Shown: piece after piece, positions 39,386-60,612 of the stretch | How positions within the stretch are numbered: the first letter of the stretch is position 1 | How the letters are laid out: every line of letters starts with the position of its first letter | NCBI GenBank assembly: GCA_002050165.1 | Contig: MWSW01000019.1 | Span: forward strand, 1-64,000 | Source of the DNA: Candidatus Tepidiaquacellales bacterium OLB4/UTCHB1 | Lineage (GTDB): Bacteria; Bacteroidota; Ignavibacteria; Tepidaquicellales; Tepidaquicellaceae | DNA length: 64,000 nt | Direction: 5' to 3' | Translations under genes and position numbers: made by a program | Notes under the pieces: generated by a model | What the model was told of the DNA's origin: nothing | Database searches by the model: none | Seen by the model: only the letters and a program-made list of their open reading frames with translations

Positions 39386-41938
39386 ATGAAAAAAAGTAAA
39401 CACAACTTTAAGGTAATGCACTTTGTTTTCGTATTTGCCTTGGTTTCCGTTATCAGTTTTTCTATCGGGTTTAATAACAATCCGTGGGATGCTGATCCAA
39501 ACTTCGACGGTATCCCGCAGGAAGTTTTAGATAATTTGAATCAACACCCTCAAACTCCTGATAACTTTATGTCGGATCCGGTTACAGATGCCGATGGTTA
39601 CGACAATTTTTATCTTGGGGTGGATTTTGCGGAAGGTCACATTTCGATGAACCCGAATAATCCGCAACAGATGTTCGTCGCATACAACATCAATAATACA
39701 TGGTACACAAACAACGGGCACGACTGGTACAGAAACAATCCTTCGTTTCCAAGCTCTTCAGGTGACCCGGTTACTGCTTACGATGGTGCCGGAAATTTGT
39801 ACTACGACAATATGAAAAGTCCTATATCCGGTACATGGGTTGTAAAATCAACAAACAATAGCACAACATGGTCAAGTGCGCTTACATTCAATACAGGTAA
39901 CGATAAGAACTGGATTGCAGCAGACCAAACTAACGGGAGTTATCAAAACTATGTTTATGGTGTTATGACGAACAGCGGTACTGCAAGTTTCTCCAGAAGT
40001 ACTAACCAAGGCGCTTCTTTTTCATTTGTGCAAAGTATGTCGCCACATAGTTTACCTGGTGCAATGGTTGCAGTTGGACCATACGGCTCAACTAACGGTG
40101 GAGCAGTTTATGCTGTAACAAACTCCGGCAGCGCTTTCTCTTCCACGTATACTTTTTTCAGATCAACAAACGGTGGAGCTAGTCTGACTTCGATGTCATC
40201 GCAAAATTTCTCAAATTACGTCGGCACTAATGTAAACGGAAGGAATTCGGTTCAGAACATGAGGACACGACCGTACCCGTTCATTGCTGCTGACAACAGC
40301 TCAGGGACTTACAGGGGTCGGCTCTATATCGTCTATGCCTCAAATCAGCCTGCAGGTAATGGAAATAAACCAGATATATTTTGCCGGTACTCAACCAATG
40401 GCGGTACAACGTTTTCAAGCGAAGTAAGAGTAAATGACGATGCAAATTCCCAAAATCACAATCAGTGGCACCCGGCAATTTGGTGTGATGTTCAAACCGG
40501 GAGATTGTACGTACAATGGATGGATACAAGGGATACGCCTACCAGTGATAGCGCCTTGATTTACGCAAGTTATTCAGACGATGGAGGTCAGACATTTGTA
40601 ACCAATCAGAAAATATCAAATAAAAAAATGAGGATAAATTGTTCCTCATGCGGAGGTGGCGGAACACCGCGCTACCAGGGGGATTACAACGGGATAGTCT
40701 CAAATTCCAAGGTGTCAGCATTAACATGGGCAGATTTCAGGAATAATAATTTTGCATCATACGTTGCATATTTCCCGGATTACGCAATGAAATTATCCAC
40801 TGCTTCAATTACTATCCCCGGATCCGGTGGTAATCAAACAGTCCAAATGCAGGTTCCAAGCGTAAAATTGTATTCAGATAACGTTCAGGTTTCGCATTCA
40901 ATTTCACCTACACCAGGTGCCGGTAATATAAATATTGGCTACCCGTCAGGTCAGACTTTATCGTCTCCTCCGGGGAATTTACCAATTCAGATTACAACTT
41001 CCGGTGGAGTTCCAAACGGAAATTATACGCTAACTGTTACCTCACAAGGTCCTAACGGGACGCCGGTTCATAAAAGGGAACTTACAATAAACGTTGGTGG
41101 CGGCGGTGGCAGTTCAGCATTTCCGGAATCTTTTGAAAGTGTAACATTCCCGCCTCCGGGCTGGGGTAAACTAAATCCTGATGGTGGTCCTGGCTGGAAC
41201 AGACAAACTGTTGGAACTTCGCCACTGCCGGGTTGGACAGGTGGTGTTATTACAGCTCCTCCGGGAGGTGAAAACGCAGTTGCATTCTGCACTTGGAATA
41301 CCGGCGGTTCTTCCGATAACGATCAATGGATATATACACCGCAAATCTCCGGTATCACGAGCTCCGATTCGCTCACATTCTGGATGAAGCGGACATATTC
41401 GGCCTACTTAGATGAAGTGCAGGTAAGGCTTTCAACCACTACGCCAACTGTTGGCGGTTTCTCAAACCTGCTTCTGACGAAGACATATCAGGCTGGTAAT
41501 GATGATTCAAACTGGACGAGGTATTCTATTCCGCTTGGCGCATACGCAGGTCAGAGTGTTTACATTGCCTGGCGAGAGAAAGTAACGGATAATTTTACGA
41601 ACGGAGCAGCCATTTCGCTTGACCTCGTGAATATTACCGGAACTGTCCTTAACGTTTCAGGTGAAGAGATTCCGTTGACTTATTCACTTTCGCAGAATTT
41701 CCCTAATCCGTTCAACCCGATGACGACAATCAAGTATTCAGTTGCCTCGGAAACTTTGGTAACATTGAAGATCTTTGATATTACGGGTCGTGAAGTTGCG
41801 ACGCTCGTTAACTCTCCGAAGATGCCCGGAAACTATGAAGTGAACTTCAATGCATCGAATCTTTCGAGTGGAGTTTATTTTTATAAACTTGAAGCGGGTG
41901 ATTTCATTGATACTAAGAGGATGTTGTTGGTGAAGTAG
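39386..41938 (+). CDS. Large secreted beta-propeller protein with anchor-J domain and type IX sorting tag
   Basis: The 850-aa protein starts at ATG 39386 with a signal peptide (MKKSKHNFKVMHFVFVFALV). Residues about 70-480 contain sialidase/BNR-like repeats such as TFFRSTNGGAS, FSRSTNQGASF and YSDDGGQTF, likely a beta-propeller. I see no clear sialidase catalytic set. A beta-sandwich follows (about 480-570), then a Gly linker (GGGGGSS), a choice-of-anchor-J-like domain (about 577-760) and a C-terminal sorting domain (from about 762) with SQNFPNPFNPMTTIKYS and SSGVYFYKLEAGDF. The last 274 codons are nearly identical to those of the next gene. It is probably exported by a type IX system and either released or attached at the surface. 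Confidence 0.88.
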   Translation: MKKSKHNFKVMHFVFVFALVSVISFSIGFNNNPWDADPNFDGIPQEVLDNLNQHPQTPDNFMSDPVTDADGYDNFYLGVDFAEGHISMNPNNPQQMFVAYNINNTWYTNNGHDWYRNNPSFPSSSGDPVTAYDGAGNLYYDNMKSPISGTWVVKSTNNSTTWSSALTFNTGNDKNWIAADQTNGSYQNYVYGVMTNSGTASFSRSTNQGASFSFVQSMSPHSLPGAMVAVGPYGSTNGGAVYAVTNSGSAFSSTYTFFRSTNGGASLTSMSSQNFSNYVGTNVNGRNSVQNMRTRPYPFIAADNSSGTYRGRLYIVYASNQPAGNGNKPDIFCRYSTNGGTTFSSEVRVNDDANSQNHNQWHPAIWCDVQTGRLYVQWMDTRDTPTSDSALIYASYSDDGGQTFVTNQKISNKKMRINCSSCGGGGTPRYQGDYNGIVSNSKVSALTWADFRNNNFASYVAYFPDYAMKLSTASITIPGSGGNQTVQMQVPSVKLYSDNVQVSHSISPTPGAGNINIGYPSGQTLSSPPGNLPIQITTSGGVPNGNYTLTVTSQGPNGTPVHKRELTINVGGGGGSSAFPESFESVTFPPPGWGKLNPDGGPGWNRQTVGTSPLPGWTGGVITAPPGGENAVAFCTWNTGGSSDNDQWIYTPQISGITSSDSLTFWMKRTYSAYLDEVQVRLSTTTPTVGGFSNLLLTKTYQAGNDDSNWTRYSIPLGAYAGQSVYIAWREKVTDNFTNGAAISLDLVNITGTVLNVSGEEIPLTYSLSQNFPNPFNPMTTIKYSVASETLVTLKIFDITGREVATLVNSPKMPGNYEVNFNASNLSSGVYFYKLEAGDFIDTKRMLLVK
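41114..41937 (+). repeat. Copy 1 of an 824-bp near-identical direct repeat
   Basis: Aligned without gaps to 42302-43125 at an offset of 1188 bases. I count 8 substitutions in the 824 positions (about 99% identity), three of which change the protein. The left edge is at the Gly-linker/domain junction and the right edge is within the stop codon (TAG here, TAA in copy 2). Flanking sequences are unrelated. Confidence 0.97.
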
Positions 41939-42214: not shown

Positions 42215-43126
42215 ATGAAGTACTTTGTATTATCAGTAATCTTATTTTTCGCTTTGCTCACATTCGACGCAAGCGATAGTTATTCACAAACTGATGGGGG
42301 ATCAGCGTTTCCGGAATCTTTTGAAAGTGTAACATTCCCGCCTCCGGGCTGGAGTAAACTAAATCCTGATGGTGGTCCTGGCTGGAACAGACAAACTGTT
42401 GGAACTTCGCCACTGCCGGGTTGGACAGGTGGTGTTATTACAGCTCCTCCGGGAGGTGAAAACGCAGTTGCATTCTGCACTTGGAATACCGGCGGTTCTT
42501 CCGATAACGATCAATGGTTATATACACCGCAAATCTCCGGTATCACGAGCTCCGATTCGCTCACATTCTGGATGAAGCGGACGTATTCGGCCTACTTAGA
42601 TGAAGTGCAGGTAAGACTTTCAACCACTACGCCAACTGTTGGCGGTTTCTCAAACCTGCTTCTGACGAAGACATATCAGGCTGGTAATGATGATTCAAAC
42701 TGGACGAGGTATTCTATTCCGCTTGGCGCATACGCAGGTCAGAGTGTTTACATTGCCTGGCGAGAGAAAGTAACGGATAATTTTACGAACGGAGCAGCCA
42801 TTTCGCTTGACCTCGTGAATATTACCGGAACTGTCCTTAATGTTTCAGGTGAAGAGATTCCGTTGACTTATTCACTTTCGCAGAATTTCCCTAATCCGTT
42901 CAACCCGATGACGACAATCAAGTATTCAGTTGCCTCGGAAACTTTGGTAACATTGAAGATCTTTGATATTACGGGTCATGAAGTTGCGACGCTCGTTAAC
43001 TCTCCGAAGATGCCCGGGAACTATGAAGTGAACTTCAATGCATCGAATCTTTCGAGTGGAGTTTATTTTTATAAACTTGAAGCGGGTGATTTCATTGATA
43101 CTAAGAGGATGTTGTTGGTGAAGTAA
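42215..43126 (+). CDS. Small secreted protein: anchor-J domain plus type IX sorting tag
   Basis: The 303-aa protein is a signal peptide (about residues 1-25, ending DSYSQ) joined by a short Gly-Gly-Ser link directly to the anchor-J-like domain and sorting tag found at the end of the 850-aa protein upstream. Over the shared 274 residues only three differ: Gly to Ser in GWSKLN, Ile to Leu in QWLYTP and Arg to His in DITGHEVAT. It has its own 5' region, a strong ribosome site and its own terminator, so it is probably expressed separately. A tagged anchor-J domain without any other functional domain is unusual. It could be a binding or adhesion module. Confidence 0.88.
   Translation: MKYFVLSVILFFALLTFDASDSYSQTDGGSAFPESFESVTFPPPGWSKLNPDGGPGWNRQTVGTSPLPGWTGGVITAPPGGENAVAFCTWNTGGSSDNDQWLYTPQISGITSSDSLTFWMKRTYSAYLDEVQVRLSTTTPTVGGFSNLLLTKTYQAGNDDSNWTRYSIPLGAYAGQSVYIAWREKVTDNFTNGAAISLDLVNITGTVLNVSGEEIPLTYSLSQNFPNPFNPMTTIKYSVASETLVTLKIFDITGHEVATLVNSPKMPGNYEVNFNASNLSSGVYFYKLEAGDFIDTKRMLLVK
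42302..43125 (+). repeat. Copy 2 of an 824-bp near-identical direct repeat
   Basis: Partner of 41114-41937, covering everything in this gene except the signal peptide and short linker. See copy 1 for mismatch count and borders. The spacer between copies is 364 bases (41938-42301) and contains a terminator, a promoter region and the new signal peptide. Confidence 0.97.
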
Positions 43127-55632: not shown

Positions 55633-58600
55633 ATGAAAACGAAAAGTTCAGTCATTGCCATCGCCAACTTAATTATCGCAATGCTTGTGTTTATCAATGT
55701 TGACACACATTCTACAGAGAAAAACAATTTCAATTTTAATGTGTCAACTTCAAATATTTATTCTCCCGGTGATCAAGTAACTTTATCGCTGTATTCTTAT
55801 ACTTATCAGGAAGATTTAAAAACCGTAAAGTTTAACTTTGATATCTTTGTTTATAGAATAATGGATATCCATAGGTTTTATTCATTGCTAAAGGCAAAAT
55901 CAAGTTACGATATTTTAGGTGCCGATAGCAGCAATCTTCTATTTCTCACCAAGGAAGTTGAAACATTAGGTAGGACTTACACAGACAATAGTAATTACGA
56001 GTACAAATCAATATACGAAACTATAACTCTGAATACTTCGGATAAAGGTGCATATCTTGTAAAGGTAATTTCAGGACAAAAAGTTGCATACTGTGGCTTC
56101 ATTATATCCGAACTCGGGTTAATAACAAAGGCAGGCAACAATTCATTGTTAGCGTTTGCAGTTGACAGAAAATCAGGTAATCCGGTTAATAACGCAAAAC
56201 TGGATTTTTACATCGGGTCACGAAAAATTGGCTCAAGTGTTACAAATGAAGGAATAGCTTATCAATCGTTCAGTCAATCCGATCTTACCGGTGAGTTCAA
56301 GTCACCTTTAGTGATCGGTGAAATGGGTGAAAATGTGATTATCTCTGATCCGTACCTGTACTTCAATCAGATTGGAAATAAATATTATGTTTATACCTAT
56401 ACAAACCAACCGGTTTATAGAACGAATTCTCAGGTTGAATTCAAAGGTACAATCAGAACACTATCATCGGGGGAATACCAACCGTATTCATCGAAGGAAA
56501 TTTCAGTGATCATTAAAGATGCTAGTAATGCTGAGATTTACAAAAGTAATTTACAAACTAACTCGAACGGAAGCTACAATGGTTCATTCAAGCTTGATGC
56601 GAATGCAGCTCTTGGAACTTATCATATTTATACAATTATCGATGACAAGAATACTTATAGTTCATCTTTTACGGTCGAACAATATAAAAAGCCGGAATAT
56701 AAAGTTGAAGTCAGCACGGATAAAGCACAATATCTCGGTAACGATCAATTAACTGGAACCGTAAAAGCTGCTTATTATTTTGGAAGTCCGCTAAACGGCG
56801 GTGATGTTGAATATAATATTTACCGGATCAGATACTACAGGCCATGGTGGTTAAACACTAAATATGCGTGGTGGTATGAAGATTATTACAGTTCGTTAGA
56901 TGAAAATCAGCAATTCAGCGGAGCGGAACAAATTTATACCGGACACGGGAAGTTGGATAGTGAGGGTAAATTTAATTTTGATTACACAATCAATCAGTTA
57001 TTTACCGAGGATAATTACAACTATTGGTACTGGCGACGAGGAGAGAGCGATTATAAGTACATTATTCAAGCTAAGGTAACAGATAAATCAAGACGAGAGA
57101 TATCTGGTACAACAACAGTGTTCGTAACAAGGGGAGCATTCACTATAAGTGCAAGAACCGGAAAGTATTGGTATAAGCCGGGTGAGTCTGTTAAAATCAG
57201 TGTGAATGCAACTGATTTTGGTAATAACCCGGTTTCTACTGATTTTAAAGCGGAAGTTTATAAAATTTTGTACACTCCGAAATATAATCATGAATCTGAT
57301 AAAAAGTTGATTACAACCCTGCATGGTAGTACAAATGAAGCAGGTGACGGAACCGTCAGTTACAACTTACCGTCGGATGAGGAAGGTTCGTTTATAATTA
57401 AAATTATTGCGACTGACAGTAAAGGAAATGAAATTACTACCGATGTATATTTTTATGTATCCTCCGGTGATTTTTCATGGTGGAATCATAATGAGTCCAC
57501 TGATATATCCCTCATGACCGATAAAGAGTCTTACAAGGTTGGCGAAAAATGCGGAGTTTTCATATTTACACCTGTTCCCGATCCAAATATTTTAGTGACA
57601 ACGGAGAATGACGATATCATTGATTATAAAGTTGTGAAACTTACAGGTACAACTTATTTTTATGAATTCGCTGTAACTGAAAATTACGGTACGAATTTTA
57701 ATGTTTCCGTAAATTTTGTTCACGATGGTGATTATTACACGAATTCAATTATCGTTCCGGTAATCCGTGAAGACAAATTTCTCAATGTAAATATTGAGAC
57801 AACAGCGGATATTTTCAAACCTAAGGATAAGGAGTTCTTTCGAATTAGAGTTACTGACTATAAAGGTGCACCTGTAAAAAACGCTGAGGTTTCTGTTGGC
57901 ATCATTGACGAATCAATTTATGCTATAAAGCCCGACAACACAAAAGACGTCAGAAAATTTTTCTATGGTCCGGAGTATTCGGGATTAGTAACCAGGTATT
58001 CCTCCGGTCAAATGATTAGCAATCATTCCAGATTTTTAAATCTGATGGAAGCTTATAACATAAGGAGTTTTAATGATCCTGAATTGGCAACTGTCTTCGG
58101 ACGGATAACCGATGCAAATGGAAACCCGGTAATCGGAATGTCAATCGTAATTGATAATAGTTTTATTGTAAGCACAACAAATAACGATGGGAATTTTTCA
58201 TTTAAAATTCCGGAGGGTGAATATGAGCTCGGATATGGATTACCCGGTTTGGAGTATTTCAAATTAAAGGAGATTGAACTTGATGAAAGATCCAGCCTTA
58301 AGATTGATTTCAAAATCAATGCTGAAAATGTAGCAATTATAAAAGAGGAGCAATTATTCAAAGATGGCGACTTGAGTGCCCCCCGATTAAGCGATTTCAA
58401 CGGGCGAGATGGCAGTGAGGTTCCAATGGAAGAATCTACAATGAAGACAAAAAGTCTGTCAACCGAAACGGTGGAACCCGATGTCAGATCCGATTTTCGT
58501 GATGCAATATTATGGTCTCCAAATACAATAACTGATGAGAACGGATATGCTGATCTTGAAATCCAATTTCCGGATAACCTTACAGAATGGCGAATAACAT

Positions 58601-60612
58601 CACGCGTAATAACTGCTGATACCAAAGTTGGGCAGAACGTTCGTACGGTCATAACCAGAAAGGATCTTCTTGTACGGATGGAAACTCCGAGATTTTTCAG
58701 ACAGGGAGATGAGGTAACTATTTCAGCCATTGTTCATAATTATTTAGCCGATGCCAAGGAAACCGCAGTCAGGTTTAAAACTGAAAATCTGATTTTTAAC
58801 GGAGAAAGTGAAAAGACTATTACTCTCCAGCCAAATCAGGATACGAGGATAGATTGGAAAGTCCGTGTTGATCAACCAACGGGTGAAGCGAAATTATATG
58901 TAGAAGCGCTAACTGATGAAGAATCAGACGCTGTTGAACTGAAGGTACCTCTCCAGCCAAGAGGACTTAGAGTTACACAATCCGCGATAGTGGATTTCGA
59001 TGACCTGAATAAAACAGAATTTGAATATATTAACATTCCTGAACATGCGGATATACGTACAACCCGGATGAAGTTTACTGTTTCACCATCACTCGCTTCA
59101 ACCATATTGAGCTCGCTTGATGAGCTTGCCGGATATCCGTACGGTTGCGTTGAACAAACTATGAGCAGATTCTTACCGACAGTTGTTGTTGCCAAAGCAT
59201 TCAGGGAATTGAACGCACCTTTGAATGAGGTTACGCAGAAAAACTTACCTGAATTCGTCAGCGTCGGTTTACAACGCCTGTACGGATTTCAGAAAAATGA
59301 TGGAAGCTGGGGCTGGTGGTATAACGATGATATGAACCCGTTCATGACTGCATATGTTTTGTATGGTTTCTCGATTGCAAATGAAAGTGGCTATAATGTA
59401 AATCACACTTCGTTCAGCAAGGGAATTAATGCATTAAAAGTAAGCTTAAAATCGGACATGGATCCGACTACACGGGCGTATGTCAATTACGTTCTTGCTT
59501 ACAGTGGGAATTCGGATTTAAAAACGCTTGAAGGTGAATACAATAAGATTTCCGGTAATAAGTCTGATTACACTTTAAGCCTGATGGCGCTGGCGTTTGA
59601 ATTGGCCGGGGACCACAACCGCGCTCTCGAATTGGTAAATTTACTAGAATCTCAGGTACAGTACTCAGGTGAAGGCGCTGCATATTGGGAAACCATGAAC
59701 CCGGGATTCAGGTGGCAAGACGATAAAGTTCAAGCAACTGCAATGGCGTTGAAAGCTTTAATGAACATAAAGTCTGATTCGGAATTGAAGAACAAGGTTG
59801 TCAGATGGTTGATGACTCAAAGGCGCGGATTATCTTGGAGGAGCACACAGGAAACAGCTTTCATAATTTTTGCTATGGTTGATTATCTGAAGAATTCAGA
59901 TGAACTCAGTCCGGATTATGAGGTCAAGGTTTTTGTTAACAATGTACTTAAATATGAAAAGCAAATGACCGAATCGGATGTATTTTCGAAAGAGAATGTA
60001 ATATTATTAGATTATAATAGTCTCGTAAACGGTGCAAATGAAATTAGAATTGAAAAATCCGGAAAAGGTAAAGTTTACTTCTCATCAGGCATTGATTATT
60101 ATTTGAACGATGCTTCTGTTCTCTCAAGAGAAAATGGTTTCAGGGTAGAACGTGAATATTATAAACTTGAAAAGTATGAAGCATATAACTCGGATAAAAT
60201 TACTTACAGGAAAAAATATTTTGACGGTACTTTGAAATCAGGTGATTATGTGTTGGTGAAATTAAAAGTAAGTGCCAAAGAACCTAATACCCAATATTTC
60301 ATGATTGAAGATCCGATTCCTTCTGGAACTGAAGTGATAAAAGATGACTGGCAATTTACAATTGAGGAGGAAACAAATTATGCGGGATACGATCATTACT
60401 GGTGGAGATGGTGGTATGCGGATAAGGATATTTGGGATGATAGGGTTACTTTTTTTGCAACATATTTGTACGGCGACACTTACGAATTCAGCTATATTTT
60501 AAGAGCTCAGATACCCGGCGAATACAGCGTTAATCCTTCACAGGGGATGTTGATGTATTACCCTGAAGTTTACGGAAGCACTGACGAATTTAAACTTAGT
60601 ATTATTGATTGA
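55633..60612 (+). CDS. Bacterial alpha-2-macroglobulin family protein with thioester
   Basis: The 1659-aa protein has a signal peptide (about residues 1-28) with no lipobox cysteine. It has many MG-type beta domains, an A2M_N-like region with TNQPVYRTNSQVEFKG, a bait-type region (about 615-740), an inserted carboxypeptidase regulatory-like domain (about 820-905, GRITDANGNPVIGMSIVID), the A2M core (about 954-1050, AILWSPNTITDENGYADLEI) and a thioester domain with YGCVEQTMSRFLP (Cys1172 to Gln1175). Such proteins trap proteases in the periplasm or at the surface. Usual partner PBP1C is absent here. Tryptophan/tyrosine clusters occur at about 400-430 and 1585-1600. Two unrelated single genes flank it. 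Confidence 0.9.
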   Translation: MKTKSSVIAIANLIIAMLVFINVDTHSTEKNNFNFNVSTSNIYSPGDQVTLSLYSYTYQEDLKTVKFNFDIFVYRIMDIHRFYSLLKAKSSYDILGADSSNLLFLTKEVETLGRTYTDNSNYEYKSIYETITLNTSDKGAYLVKVISGQKVAYCGFIISELGLITKAGNNSLLAFAVDRKSGNPVNNAKLDFYIGSRKIGSSVTNEGIAYQSFSQSDLTGEFKSPLVIGEMGENVIISDPYLYFNQIGNKYYVYTYTNQPVYRTNSQVEFKGTIRTLSSGEYQPYSSKEISVIIKDASNAEIYKSNLQTNSNGSYNGSFKLDANAALGTYHIYTIIDDKNTYSSSFTVEQYKKPEYKVEVSTDKAQYLGNDQLTGTVKAAYYFGSPLNGGDVEYNIYRIRYYRPWWLNTKYAWWYEDYYSSLDENQQFSGAEQIYTGHGKLDSEGKFNFDYTINQLFTEDNYNYWYWRRGESDYKYIIQAKVTDKSRREISGTTTVFVTRGAFTISARTGKYWYKPGESVKISVNATDFGNNPVSTDFKAEVYKILYTPKYNHESDKKLITTLHGSTNEAGDGTVSYNLPSDEEGSFIIKIIATDSKGNEITTDVYFYVSSGDFSWWNHNESTDISLMTDKESYKVGEKCGVFIFTPVPDPNILVTTENDDIIDYKVVKLTGTTYFYEFAVTENYGTNFNVSVNFVHDGDYYTNSIIVPVIREDKFLNVNIETTADIFKPKDKEFFRIRVTDYKGAPVKNAEVSVGIIDESIYAIKPDNTKDVRKFFYGPEYSGLVTRYSSGQMISNHSRFLNLMEAYNIRSFNDPELATVFGRITDANGNPVIGMSIVIDNSFIVSTTNNDGNFSFKIPEGEYELGYGLPGLEYFKLKEIELDERSSLKIDFKINAENVAIIKEEQLFKDGDLSAPRLSDFNGRDGSEVPMEESTMKTKSLSTETVEPDVRSDFRDAILWSPNTITDENGYADLEIQFPDNLTEWRITSRVITADTKVGQNVRTVITRKDLLVRMETPRFFRQGDEVTISAIVHNYLADAKETAVRFKTENLIFNGESEKTITLQPNQDTRIDWKVRVDQPTGEAKLYVEALTDEESDAVELKVPLQPRGLRVTQSAIVDFDDLNKTEFEYINIPEHADIRTTRMKFTVSPSLASTILSSLDELAGYPYGCVEQTMSRFLPTVVVAKAFRELNAPLNEVTQKNLPEFVSVGLQRLYGFQKNDGSWGWWYNDDMNPFMTAYVLYGFSIANESGYNVNHTSFSKGINALKVSLKSDMDPTTRAYVNYVLAYSGNSDLKTLEGEYNKISGNKSDYTLSLMALAFELAGDHNRALELVNLLESQVQYSGEGAAYWETMNPGFRWQDDKVQATAMALKALMNIKSDSELKNKVVRWLMTQRRGLSWRSTQETAFIIFAMVDYLKNSDELSPDYEVKVFVNNVLKYEKQMTESDVFSKENVILLDYNSLVNGANEIRIEKSGKGKVYFSSGIDYYLNDASVLSRENGFRVEREYYKLEKYEAYNSDKITYRKKYFDGTLKSGDYVLVKLKVSAKEPNTQYFMIEDPIPSGTEVIKDDWQFTIEEETNYAGYDHYWWRWWYADKDIWDDRVTFFATYLYGDTYEFSYILRAQIPGEYSVNPSQGMLMYYPEVYGSTDEFKLSIID

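What the first reader, a model, noticed from the sequence alone, without database searches (positions are those of the whole stretch)
55633..60612. Non-lipoprotein alpha-2-macroglobulin with embedded carboxypeptidase-like domain and no PBP1C partner
The thioester (Cys1172-Val-Glu-Gln1175) is intact, yet the signal peptide lacks a lipobox and the usual pbpC neighbour is missing. A regulatory-like domain is inserted before the A2M core, and two Trp/Tyr-rich clusters occur. This may be a surface or released protease trap rather than a periplasmic one.
Basis: partly seen in the sequence, partly recalled or inferred. Interest (0 to 1): 0.5.

Follow-up and report, generated by a model that had tools for sequence, protein, structure and literature searches.

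The report
Protease trap with receptor-like bait insert
The gene encodes a large bacterial protein that looks like a protease trap related to human alpha-2-macroglobulin; its odd extra domain sits at the trap's cleavable bait, and relatives show that this stretch carries pieces of outer-membrane nutrient receptors, which may hint at what the trap protects.

Summary
In detail: 55633-60612 encodes a 1659-aa alpha-2-macroglobulin (A2M) with an intact Cys1172-Val-Glu-Gln1175 thioester motif, a signal peptide without lipobox, and no PBP1C gene over cut-off in the genome. For its lineage this is ordinary: relatives in two Ignavibacteria families share the architecture (CarboxypepD_reg in 19 of 19 aligned). 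The genome has 115 type IX tail matches and this A2M has none, so a soluble periplasmic trap is likelier than a surface or released one.

The interesting part is the 'carboxypeptidase-like' domain. It lies inside the A2M core, between A2M_BRD and A2M (PF00207), where the bait belongs. It resembles the N-terminal domain of TonB-dependent receptors (TBDTs) and precedes a disordered, hypervariable linker, the likely bait. In 10 of 40 A2Ms from related genomes the bait stretch matches TonB-box/plug sequence of one conserved receptor (0 of 200 shuffles each); in two paralogs about 95-99 aa are 71-73% identical to it, with synonymous sites at background. A different A2M type elsewhere in Bacteroidota shows a TonB-box motif in 14 of 30 baits (0.26 expected; post hoc motif). 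The window's own linker shows no such piece. Receptor-derived baits are my reading; their function is inferred, untested.

The parts
55633..60612 (+). alpha-2-macroglobulin gene, 1659 aa
55633..55710 (+). signal peptide, Sec type, no lipobox (residues 1-26, boundary approximate, by eye)
   Evidence: no signal-peptide program was run
56389..56673 (+). MG2 domain (residues 253-347)
56842..56892 (+). first Trp/Tyr-rich cluster (residues 404-420), W405, W406, W414 invariant in 19
57508..57924 (+). A2M_BRD, up to the first half of MG6 (residues 626-764)
   Evidence: MG6 naming from knowledge of C3/A2M
58090..58314 (+). CarboxypepD_reg domain (residues 820-894) inserted between A2M_BRD and A2M; resembles the N-terminal domain of TonB-dependent receptors
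58345..58464 (+). predicted bait linker (residues 905-944), pLDDT below 50, hypervariable in relatives
58507..58773 (+). A2M domain PF00207 (residues 959-1047)
59092..59895 (+). all-helical thioester domain (residues about 1154-1421)
59146..59157 (+). thioester motif Cys1172-Val-Glu-Gln1175
60136..60567 (+). bMG10 domain (residues 1502-1645), holds the second Trp-rich cluster (residues 1589-1598)

Best explanation
A soluble periplasmic thioester A2M of a stand-alone Ignavibacteria subfamily. A protease that gets into the periplasm cuts the exposed linker at residues about 905-944; the A2M then collapses and the Cys1172-Gln1175 thioester couples to the attacker (mechanism taken from known A2Ms, not tested here). 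The segment at the bait site (residues about 818-950) is a TTR-like domain of the kind that begins TonB-dependent receptors, followed by the linker. In relatives the linker carries TonB-box and plug pieces of such receptors, so the bait segment of this group is most likely made of, or topped up from, receptor N-termini; in the window protein only the TTR-like domain is still recognisable. Shown: domains, motif, disorder prediction, distribution, receptor pieces in relatives. Inferred: protease trapping, periplasmic place, receptor origin of the window's own insert.
For: Domains and fold; Foldseek best hits ECAM 5a42 (E 5e-33, N-half) and A2ML1 7q1y and ECAM 5a42 (E 2e-49, 4e-49, C-half). Insert at the bait site present in 51 of 61 aligned sequences, 8 without it and 2 intermediate (16 of 77 ORFs dropped as shorter than 1300 aa); the 10 without it show no Pfam family there. 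Linker 899-946: 8% mean pairwise identity, lengths 35-92, against 27% for the domain before and 52% after it; pLDDT below 50 for 910-954 and 905-944 in the two models. Window insert aligns to receptor N-terminal domains, 0 of 100 shuffles reach it. Receptor pieces in baits of related genomes: 10 of 40 at 0 of 200 shuffles, 3 more at 1 of 200. No PBP1C in 44 of 44 family/order genomes; the 7 class genomes that have it all carry an A2M match on the same contig, of another subtype.
Against: The window's own linker does not match the receptor plug panel (122 of 200 and 160 of 200 shuffles reach its score) and by chance was the one bait of 39 to beat 100 shuffles against a barrel control. The TTR-like domain alone is a widespread fold: in 21 of 30 window-type inserts it scores higher to 4 other receptors than to 30 copies of the one receptor that gave the plug pieces, 1 tie, so its source is unsettled. 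Location and activity are untested.
Confidence: 0.65

Rival explanations
1. An ordinary bacterial A2M whose bait site merely picked up a common TTR-like domain as a spacer; the receptor pieces seen in relatives are chance recombination debris without a role.
For: CarboxypepD_reg is a common fold; the window's linker has no receptor piece; 30 of 40 baits do not reach 0 of 200; receptor pieces differ from bait to bait.
Against: In paralogs 69 of 95 and 70 of 99 residues equal the receptor while codons of identical residues agree in only 32 of 69 and 30 of 70, about the 0.44 expected from codon usage: old captures still similar in protein. The same kind of piece recurs in another A2M type across Bacteroidota.
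Confidence: 0.3
2. A surface-exposed or released protease trap.
For: No lipobox, so not anchored by a lipid.
Against: No type IX tail in the protein in a genome with 115 matches to that tail; no other export signal seen beyond the N-terminal one.
Confidence: 0.1
3. A type I A2M (ECAM/YfhM kind) that lost lipobox and pbpC.
For: Thioester, MG2, A2M_BRD, TED and bMG10 shared.
Against: The core tree separates the window clade from the pbpC-linked A2Ms and from YfhM (quick search, YfhM on a long branch); bMG3 is under cut-off and bMG5, bMG6, bMG1 are not matched at E 1; best solved match is CD109, not YfhM.
Confidence: 0.1

Closest known systems
E. coli/Salmonella type I A2M (ECAM/YfhM; 5a42, 4u48)
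   Same: CXEQ thioester, MG domains, bait site before PF00207, bMG10 end, overall fold
   Different: no lipobox, no pbpC, no bMG5/bMG6 match, extra CarboxypepD_reg at the bait site
P. aeruginosa type II A2M (MagD)
   Same: bacterial A2M not tied to PBP1C
   Different: MagD lacks the thioester and lies in a six-gene operon (PMC5764988, abstract and introduction read); the window gene has CVEQ and is flanked by unrelated genes
Metazoan CD109 / TEP1 / A2ML1
   Same: best sequence matches among solved structures (CD109 E 1.6e-45); an inserted segment in MG6 is where bait or anaphylatoxin lie (recalled)
   Different: bacterial C-terminal bMG10 domain; TTR-like domain in the insert
Large (about 2000-aa) Bacteroidota A2Ms with CarboxypepD_reg and Plug at the bait site
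   Same: same insertion site, same kinds of receptor-derived sequence
   Different: another A2M subtype (YPYECxEQ motif; separate clade); some keep TonB box and plug, which the window protein does not
TonB-dependent receptor of the same genome (G000:C8:511960-512445, 946-aa frame)
   Same: CarboxypepD_reg N-terminal domain
   Different: has a Plug match (38.7 bits) and no A2M domain; no barrel family matched at E 0.1

Membership tests
alpha-2-macroglobulin superfamily | MG2, A2M_BRD, A2M (PF00207), TED domains | tested here: met
   all over Pfam cut-off; fold matches
alpha-2-macroglobulin superfamily | CXEQ thioester | tested here: met
   CVEQ 1172-1175; GCVEQ in 30 of 30 loci not chosen for it
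alpha-2-macroglobulin superfamily | bait cleavage, thioester coupling, protease trapping | not testable with these tools
   needs protein
Type I bacterial A2M (ECAM/YfhM) | lipobox after the signal sequence | tested here: not met
   lipobox of ECAM from PMC3328433 (passages)
Type I bacterial A2M (ECAM/YfhM) | pbpC next to it (in many species) | tested here: not met
Type I bacterial A2M (ECAM/YfhM) | bMG1, bMG3, bMG5, bMG6 domains | tested here: not met
   bMG3 19 bits, cut-off 34.9; the others not listed at E 1
Type II bacterial A2M (MagD) | no thioester, mag operon | tested here: not met
   thioester present; neighbours unrelated
CarboxypepD_reg domain | Pfam match over cut-off | tested here: met
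   50.2 bits, cut-off 32.3
A2M with receptor-derived bait | TonB box or plug sequence in the bait of this protein | tested here: not met
   122 of 200 and 160 of 200 shuffles reach the score
Type IX secreted protein | C-terminal sorting domain | tested here: not met

The most novel reading that the evidence does not exclude
Bacteroidota and Ignavibacteria A2Ms repeatedly build their bait from the periplasmic face of the cell's own TonB-dependent receptors (N-terminal domain, TonB box, plug), and keep it similar in protein over long times, so that proteases which attack or mimic access to those receptors are caught by the trap; or the TonB box in the bait couples the trap to TonB itself. The window protein would be a member that has kept only the N-terminal domain.
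Probability: 0.3. Interest if true: 0.8.

Novelty: new variant of a known kind. Interest (0 to 1): 0.55.

Why it matters
Bacterial A2Ms are thought to guard the periplasm, but what they guard against is unknown. If baits are drawn from the cell's own receptors, the bait sequence itself names the likely target of the attacking protease (or a TonB link), which can be tested directly. It would also be a clear case of a bait segment acquired from another protein, parallel to the anaphylatoxin in complement C3.

Tried and rejected
Lipoprotein or PBP1C partnership: rejected. Type IX export: rejected. Conserved operon partner: none common to the subgroups; DUF2461 at -1 in 13 and the hydrolase at -2 in 14 of 77 loci, other groups have other divergent neighbours (many loci are cut short by contig ends; the other neighbours were named by eye only). 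Recent gene conversion from receptor to A2M: not supported, synonymous sites look saturated. The insert taken as a whole from the one receptor 'TBDT-A': not supported for the TTR-like domain. Lineage tracking of receptor type by all window-type baits: 16 of 18 in the first family but only 1 of 12 in the second, and the panel was uneven, 22 to 8, so not claimed. Pfam on 14 A2Ms of other types: CarboxypepD_reg in 5 of 14 at E 0.01, in the one shown (L113) outside the bait site; Plug was not among the 25 of 29 families shown, although L119 in that set has a plug-like bait by alignment. In the trait count on the tree (2 changes) A2Ms of other types were coded as lacking the insert without a domain scan of each, and two rows were left out. 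The phylum search scored two candidates a genome, so its 14 of 395 is a lower bound. Motifs were written after reading the sequences, and related sequences were counted singly, so the shuffle figures overstate the evidence; one of the 14 TonB-box matches (L217) looks like chance.

Full report
What is there. The ORF 55633-60612 codes for 1659 aa. Pfam finds MG2, A2M_BRD, CarboxypepD_reg, A2M, TED_complement and bMG10 over their cut-offs. Residues 1172-1175 are CVEQ. Among solved structures the best sequence match is human CD109 (E 3.5e-33 alone, 1.6e-45 with a profile of 19 relatives), ahead of YfhM (1.1e-21, 1.8e-32). Two AlphaFold models (residues 26-960, mean pLDDT 83.5; residues 520-1659, 83.0) match A2Ms: the N-half ECAM best (E 5e-33), the C-half A2ML1 and ECAM (2e-49 and 4e-49).

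Ordinary for its lineage. Read, a match of 600 bits or more lies in 36 of the 43 other genomes of the same family and order (G001-G043); the seven without are G005, G007, G014, G019, G026, G027, G028. The 30 loci kept by that search all read GCVEQ. In 19 aligned relatives CarboxypepD_reg, MG2, A2M_BRD, A2M, TED and bMG10 are found in 19 of 19 and the Trp clusters are invariant. None of 62 N-terminally complete proteins has a lipobox-like motif. Named relatives are Ignavibacteria and neighbours (the search patterns there included the thioester, so its loci say nothing on how often it is kept).

PBP1C. The genome has one Transgly domain; PBP1C pieces score 170.7 and 151.0 bits, cut-off 494.2. 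Of 59 genomes searched, own included, 7 pass the cut-off, none among the 44 of the family and order. Those 7 (G044, G045, G049, G050, G054, G055, G057) each have an A2M match on the same contig. Six of these A2Ms were placed on a tree and fall outside the window's clade (quick search; G057's was not placed). So the missing pbpC marks a different A2M branch, not a lost partner.

Place in the cell. No sorting tail was found in the protein. The genome has 115 matches to the type IX tail model, 113 over cut-off; none is at this gene. I infer a soluble periplasmic protein; no signal-peptide program was available.

The insert. Between A2M_BRD (to 764) and PF00207 (from 959) lies the site where bait regions and, in C3, the anaphylatoxin are found (recalled). 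Of 61 aligned sequences (16 of 77 ORFs dropped for length) 51 have about 80-95 aa there, 8 have 20 or fewer, 2 are intermediate. CarboxypepD_reg matches 37 of the 51 stretches at E 0.01 and no Pfam family matches any of the 10 others. After it comes a linker with 8% mean pairwise identity and lengths 35-92, between regions of 27% and 52%, with pLDDT under 50 at 910-954 or 905-944: the expected look of a bait.

Receptor pieces. In paralogs of two related genomes (L126, L127) this site holds two TTR-like domains and a stretch that is 64% identical over 159 aa to the N-terminus of a 980-aa frame in the same genome. The orthologous frame in the window's genome (C8:511960-512445) has CarboxypepD_reg and Plug over cut-off, no barrel family at E 0.1; I call it TBDT-A, a receptor by these two domains and its length. 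In the L126 insert itself Plug scores 22.6 bits, just under the cut-off of 23.9. Baits were scored against 30 TBDT-A plug regions with 200 shuffles each: 10 of 75 stretches from the named and other loci reach 0 of 200, and 10 of 40 from the related genomes (four of 44 loci gave no anchor). With 39 baits, own included, and 100 shuffles, 11 beat all shuffles for the plug and 1 for a barrel control, that one being the window's own. The ten positives all scored higher to TBDT-A than to other receptors (five sequences, two of them the same gene). They belong to three A2M kinds: window type, the paralogs, and the 2000-aa type.

Age and direction. L126 and L127 match TBDT-A of their genomes in 69 of 95 and 70 of 99 residues, L119 in 48 of 64, L125 in 44 of 66, while codons of identical residues agree in 32 of 69, 30 of 70, 18 of 48 and 17 of 44; codon usage alone gives about 0.44 (computed for L126). 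So the captures look old and the protein similarity looks kept by selection. In a tree the L126/L127 pieces lie within the TBDT-A clade of their own genus (support 100/100 for the clade); L125 joins its own genome's copy with 91/69; L119 and L073 lie on long branches and are not placed with their own genus with confidence. The best-scoring receptor was from the own genus in 5 of 9 testable positives (29 of 100000 random draws reach this; L126 and L127 are not independent).

Beyond the lineage. Another A2M type is found in 47 of 247 sampled genomes of the phylum, one of them the window's own through its A2M. In 30 bait stretches read, a TonB-box motif occurs in 14 (0.26 expected), a plug N-half motif in 7 (0.89), a plug C-half motif in 5 (0.00); Pfam at E 0.01 gives CarboxypepD_reg in 11 and Plug in 5 of 30. 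The clearest, L226, has CarbopepD_reg_2 and Plug over cut-off and is 46-47% identical to frames of about 1030-1050 aa in its own genome (not scanned for domains).

Against the reading. The window's own linker gives no receptor match. Its TTR-like domain does match receptor N-terminal domains (0 of 100 shuffles), but as well or better to other receptors than to TBDT-A (100 against 91); over 30 inserts the other receptors win in 21, TBDT-A in 8, one tie. So for the window protein a receptor origin of the insert is an inference from orthologs such as L003, whose insert aligns with TBDT-A from the TTR-like domain to 'GIDVEQSGRVIT'.

Literature. Ten searches of the open PMC library. I read the abstract, introduction and start of the results of PMC5764988 and passages of PMC3328433; others only as listings. 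No paper held macroglobulin with 'TonB-dependent receptor' and 'bait', nor alpha-2-macroglobulin with Bacteroidota and TonB; the one with macroglobulin, plug domain and TonB is about a zinc receptor. I recall, from no call, that domain databases list Bacteroidetes A2Ms with a Plug domain, so the architecture is probably visible there even if not discussed. Subscription journals were not searched.

Verdict. The finding as stated is real and ordinary. What lies behind its odd domain is a variant of a known kind: A2Ms whose bait site holds receptor-like sequence. Interest 0.55, because the window's own copy keeps only part of it.

Noticed in passing
own genome C8, L167:2784-14514: TBDT-A lies in a conserved cluster with a secreted protein with type IX tail and BNR match, a 1123-aa protein without Pfam match, a PorV-like protein, a GWxTD protein and a YbbR protein; five of these genes recur beside it in relatives.
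   Followed up: partly
L125, L126, L127: Second, longer A2M paralogs in the sister family with bait sites of 260-344 aa; L126 and L127 carry two TTR-like domains.
   Followed up: partly
genomes G007, G019, G026, G027, G028 (one genus): No window-type A2M over 80 bits, but A2Ms of the 2000-aa type.
   Followed up: no
window:41699-41926 and 42887-43114: Two type IX secretion tails at the ends of the genes 39386-41938 and 42215-43126.
   Followed up: no
window:52990-53796: DUF4397 protein with a lipobox-like FQGC after its signal sequence (by eye), so lipoproteins occur next to the non-lipoprotein A2M.
   Followed up: no
L082, L085: A2Ms on contigs titled Thalassobius and Thalassovita group with Bacteroidota ones; possibly mis-binned contigs.
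   Followed up: no
L105, L109: Verrucomicrobia-like A2Ms with about 60 aa at the insert site that match no Pfam family.
   Followed up: no
window:51004-51993: Kinase-like protein with weak matches to AmgK (37.7 bits, cut-off 550).
   Followed up: no
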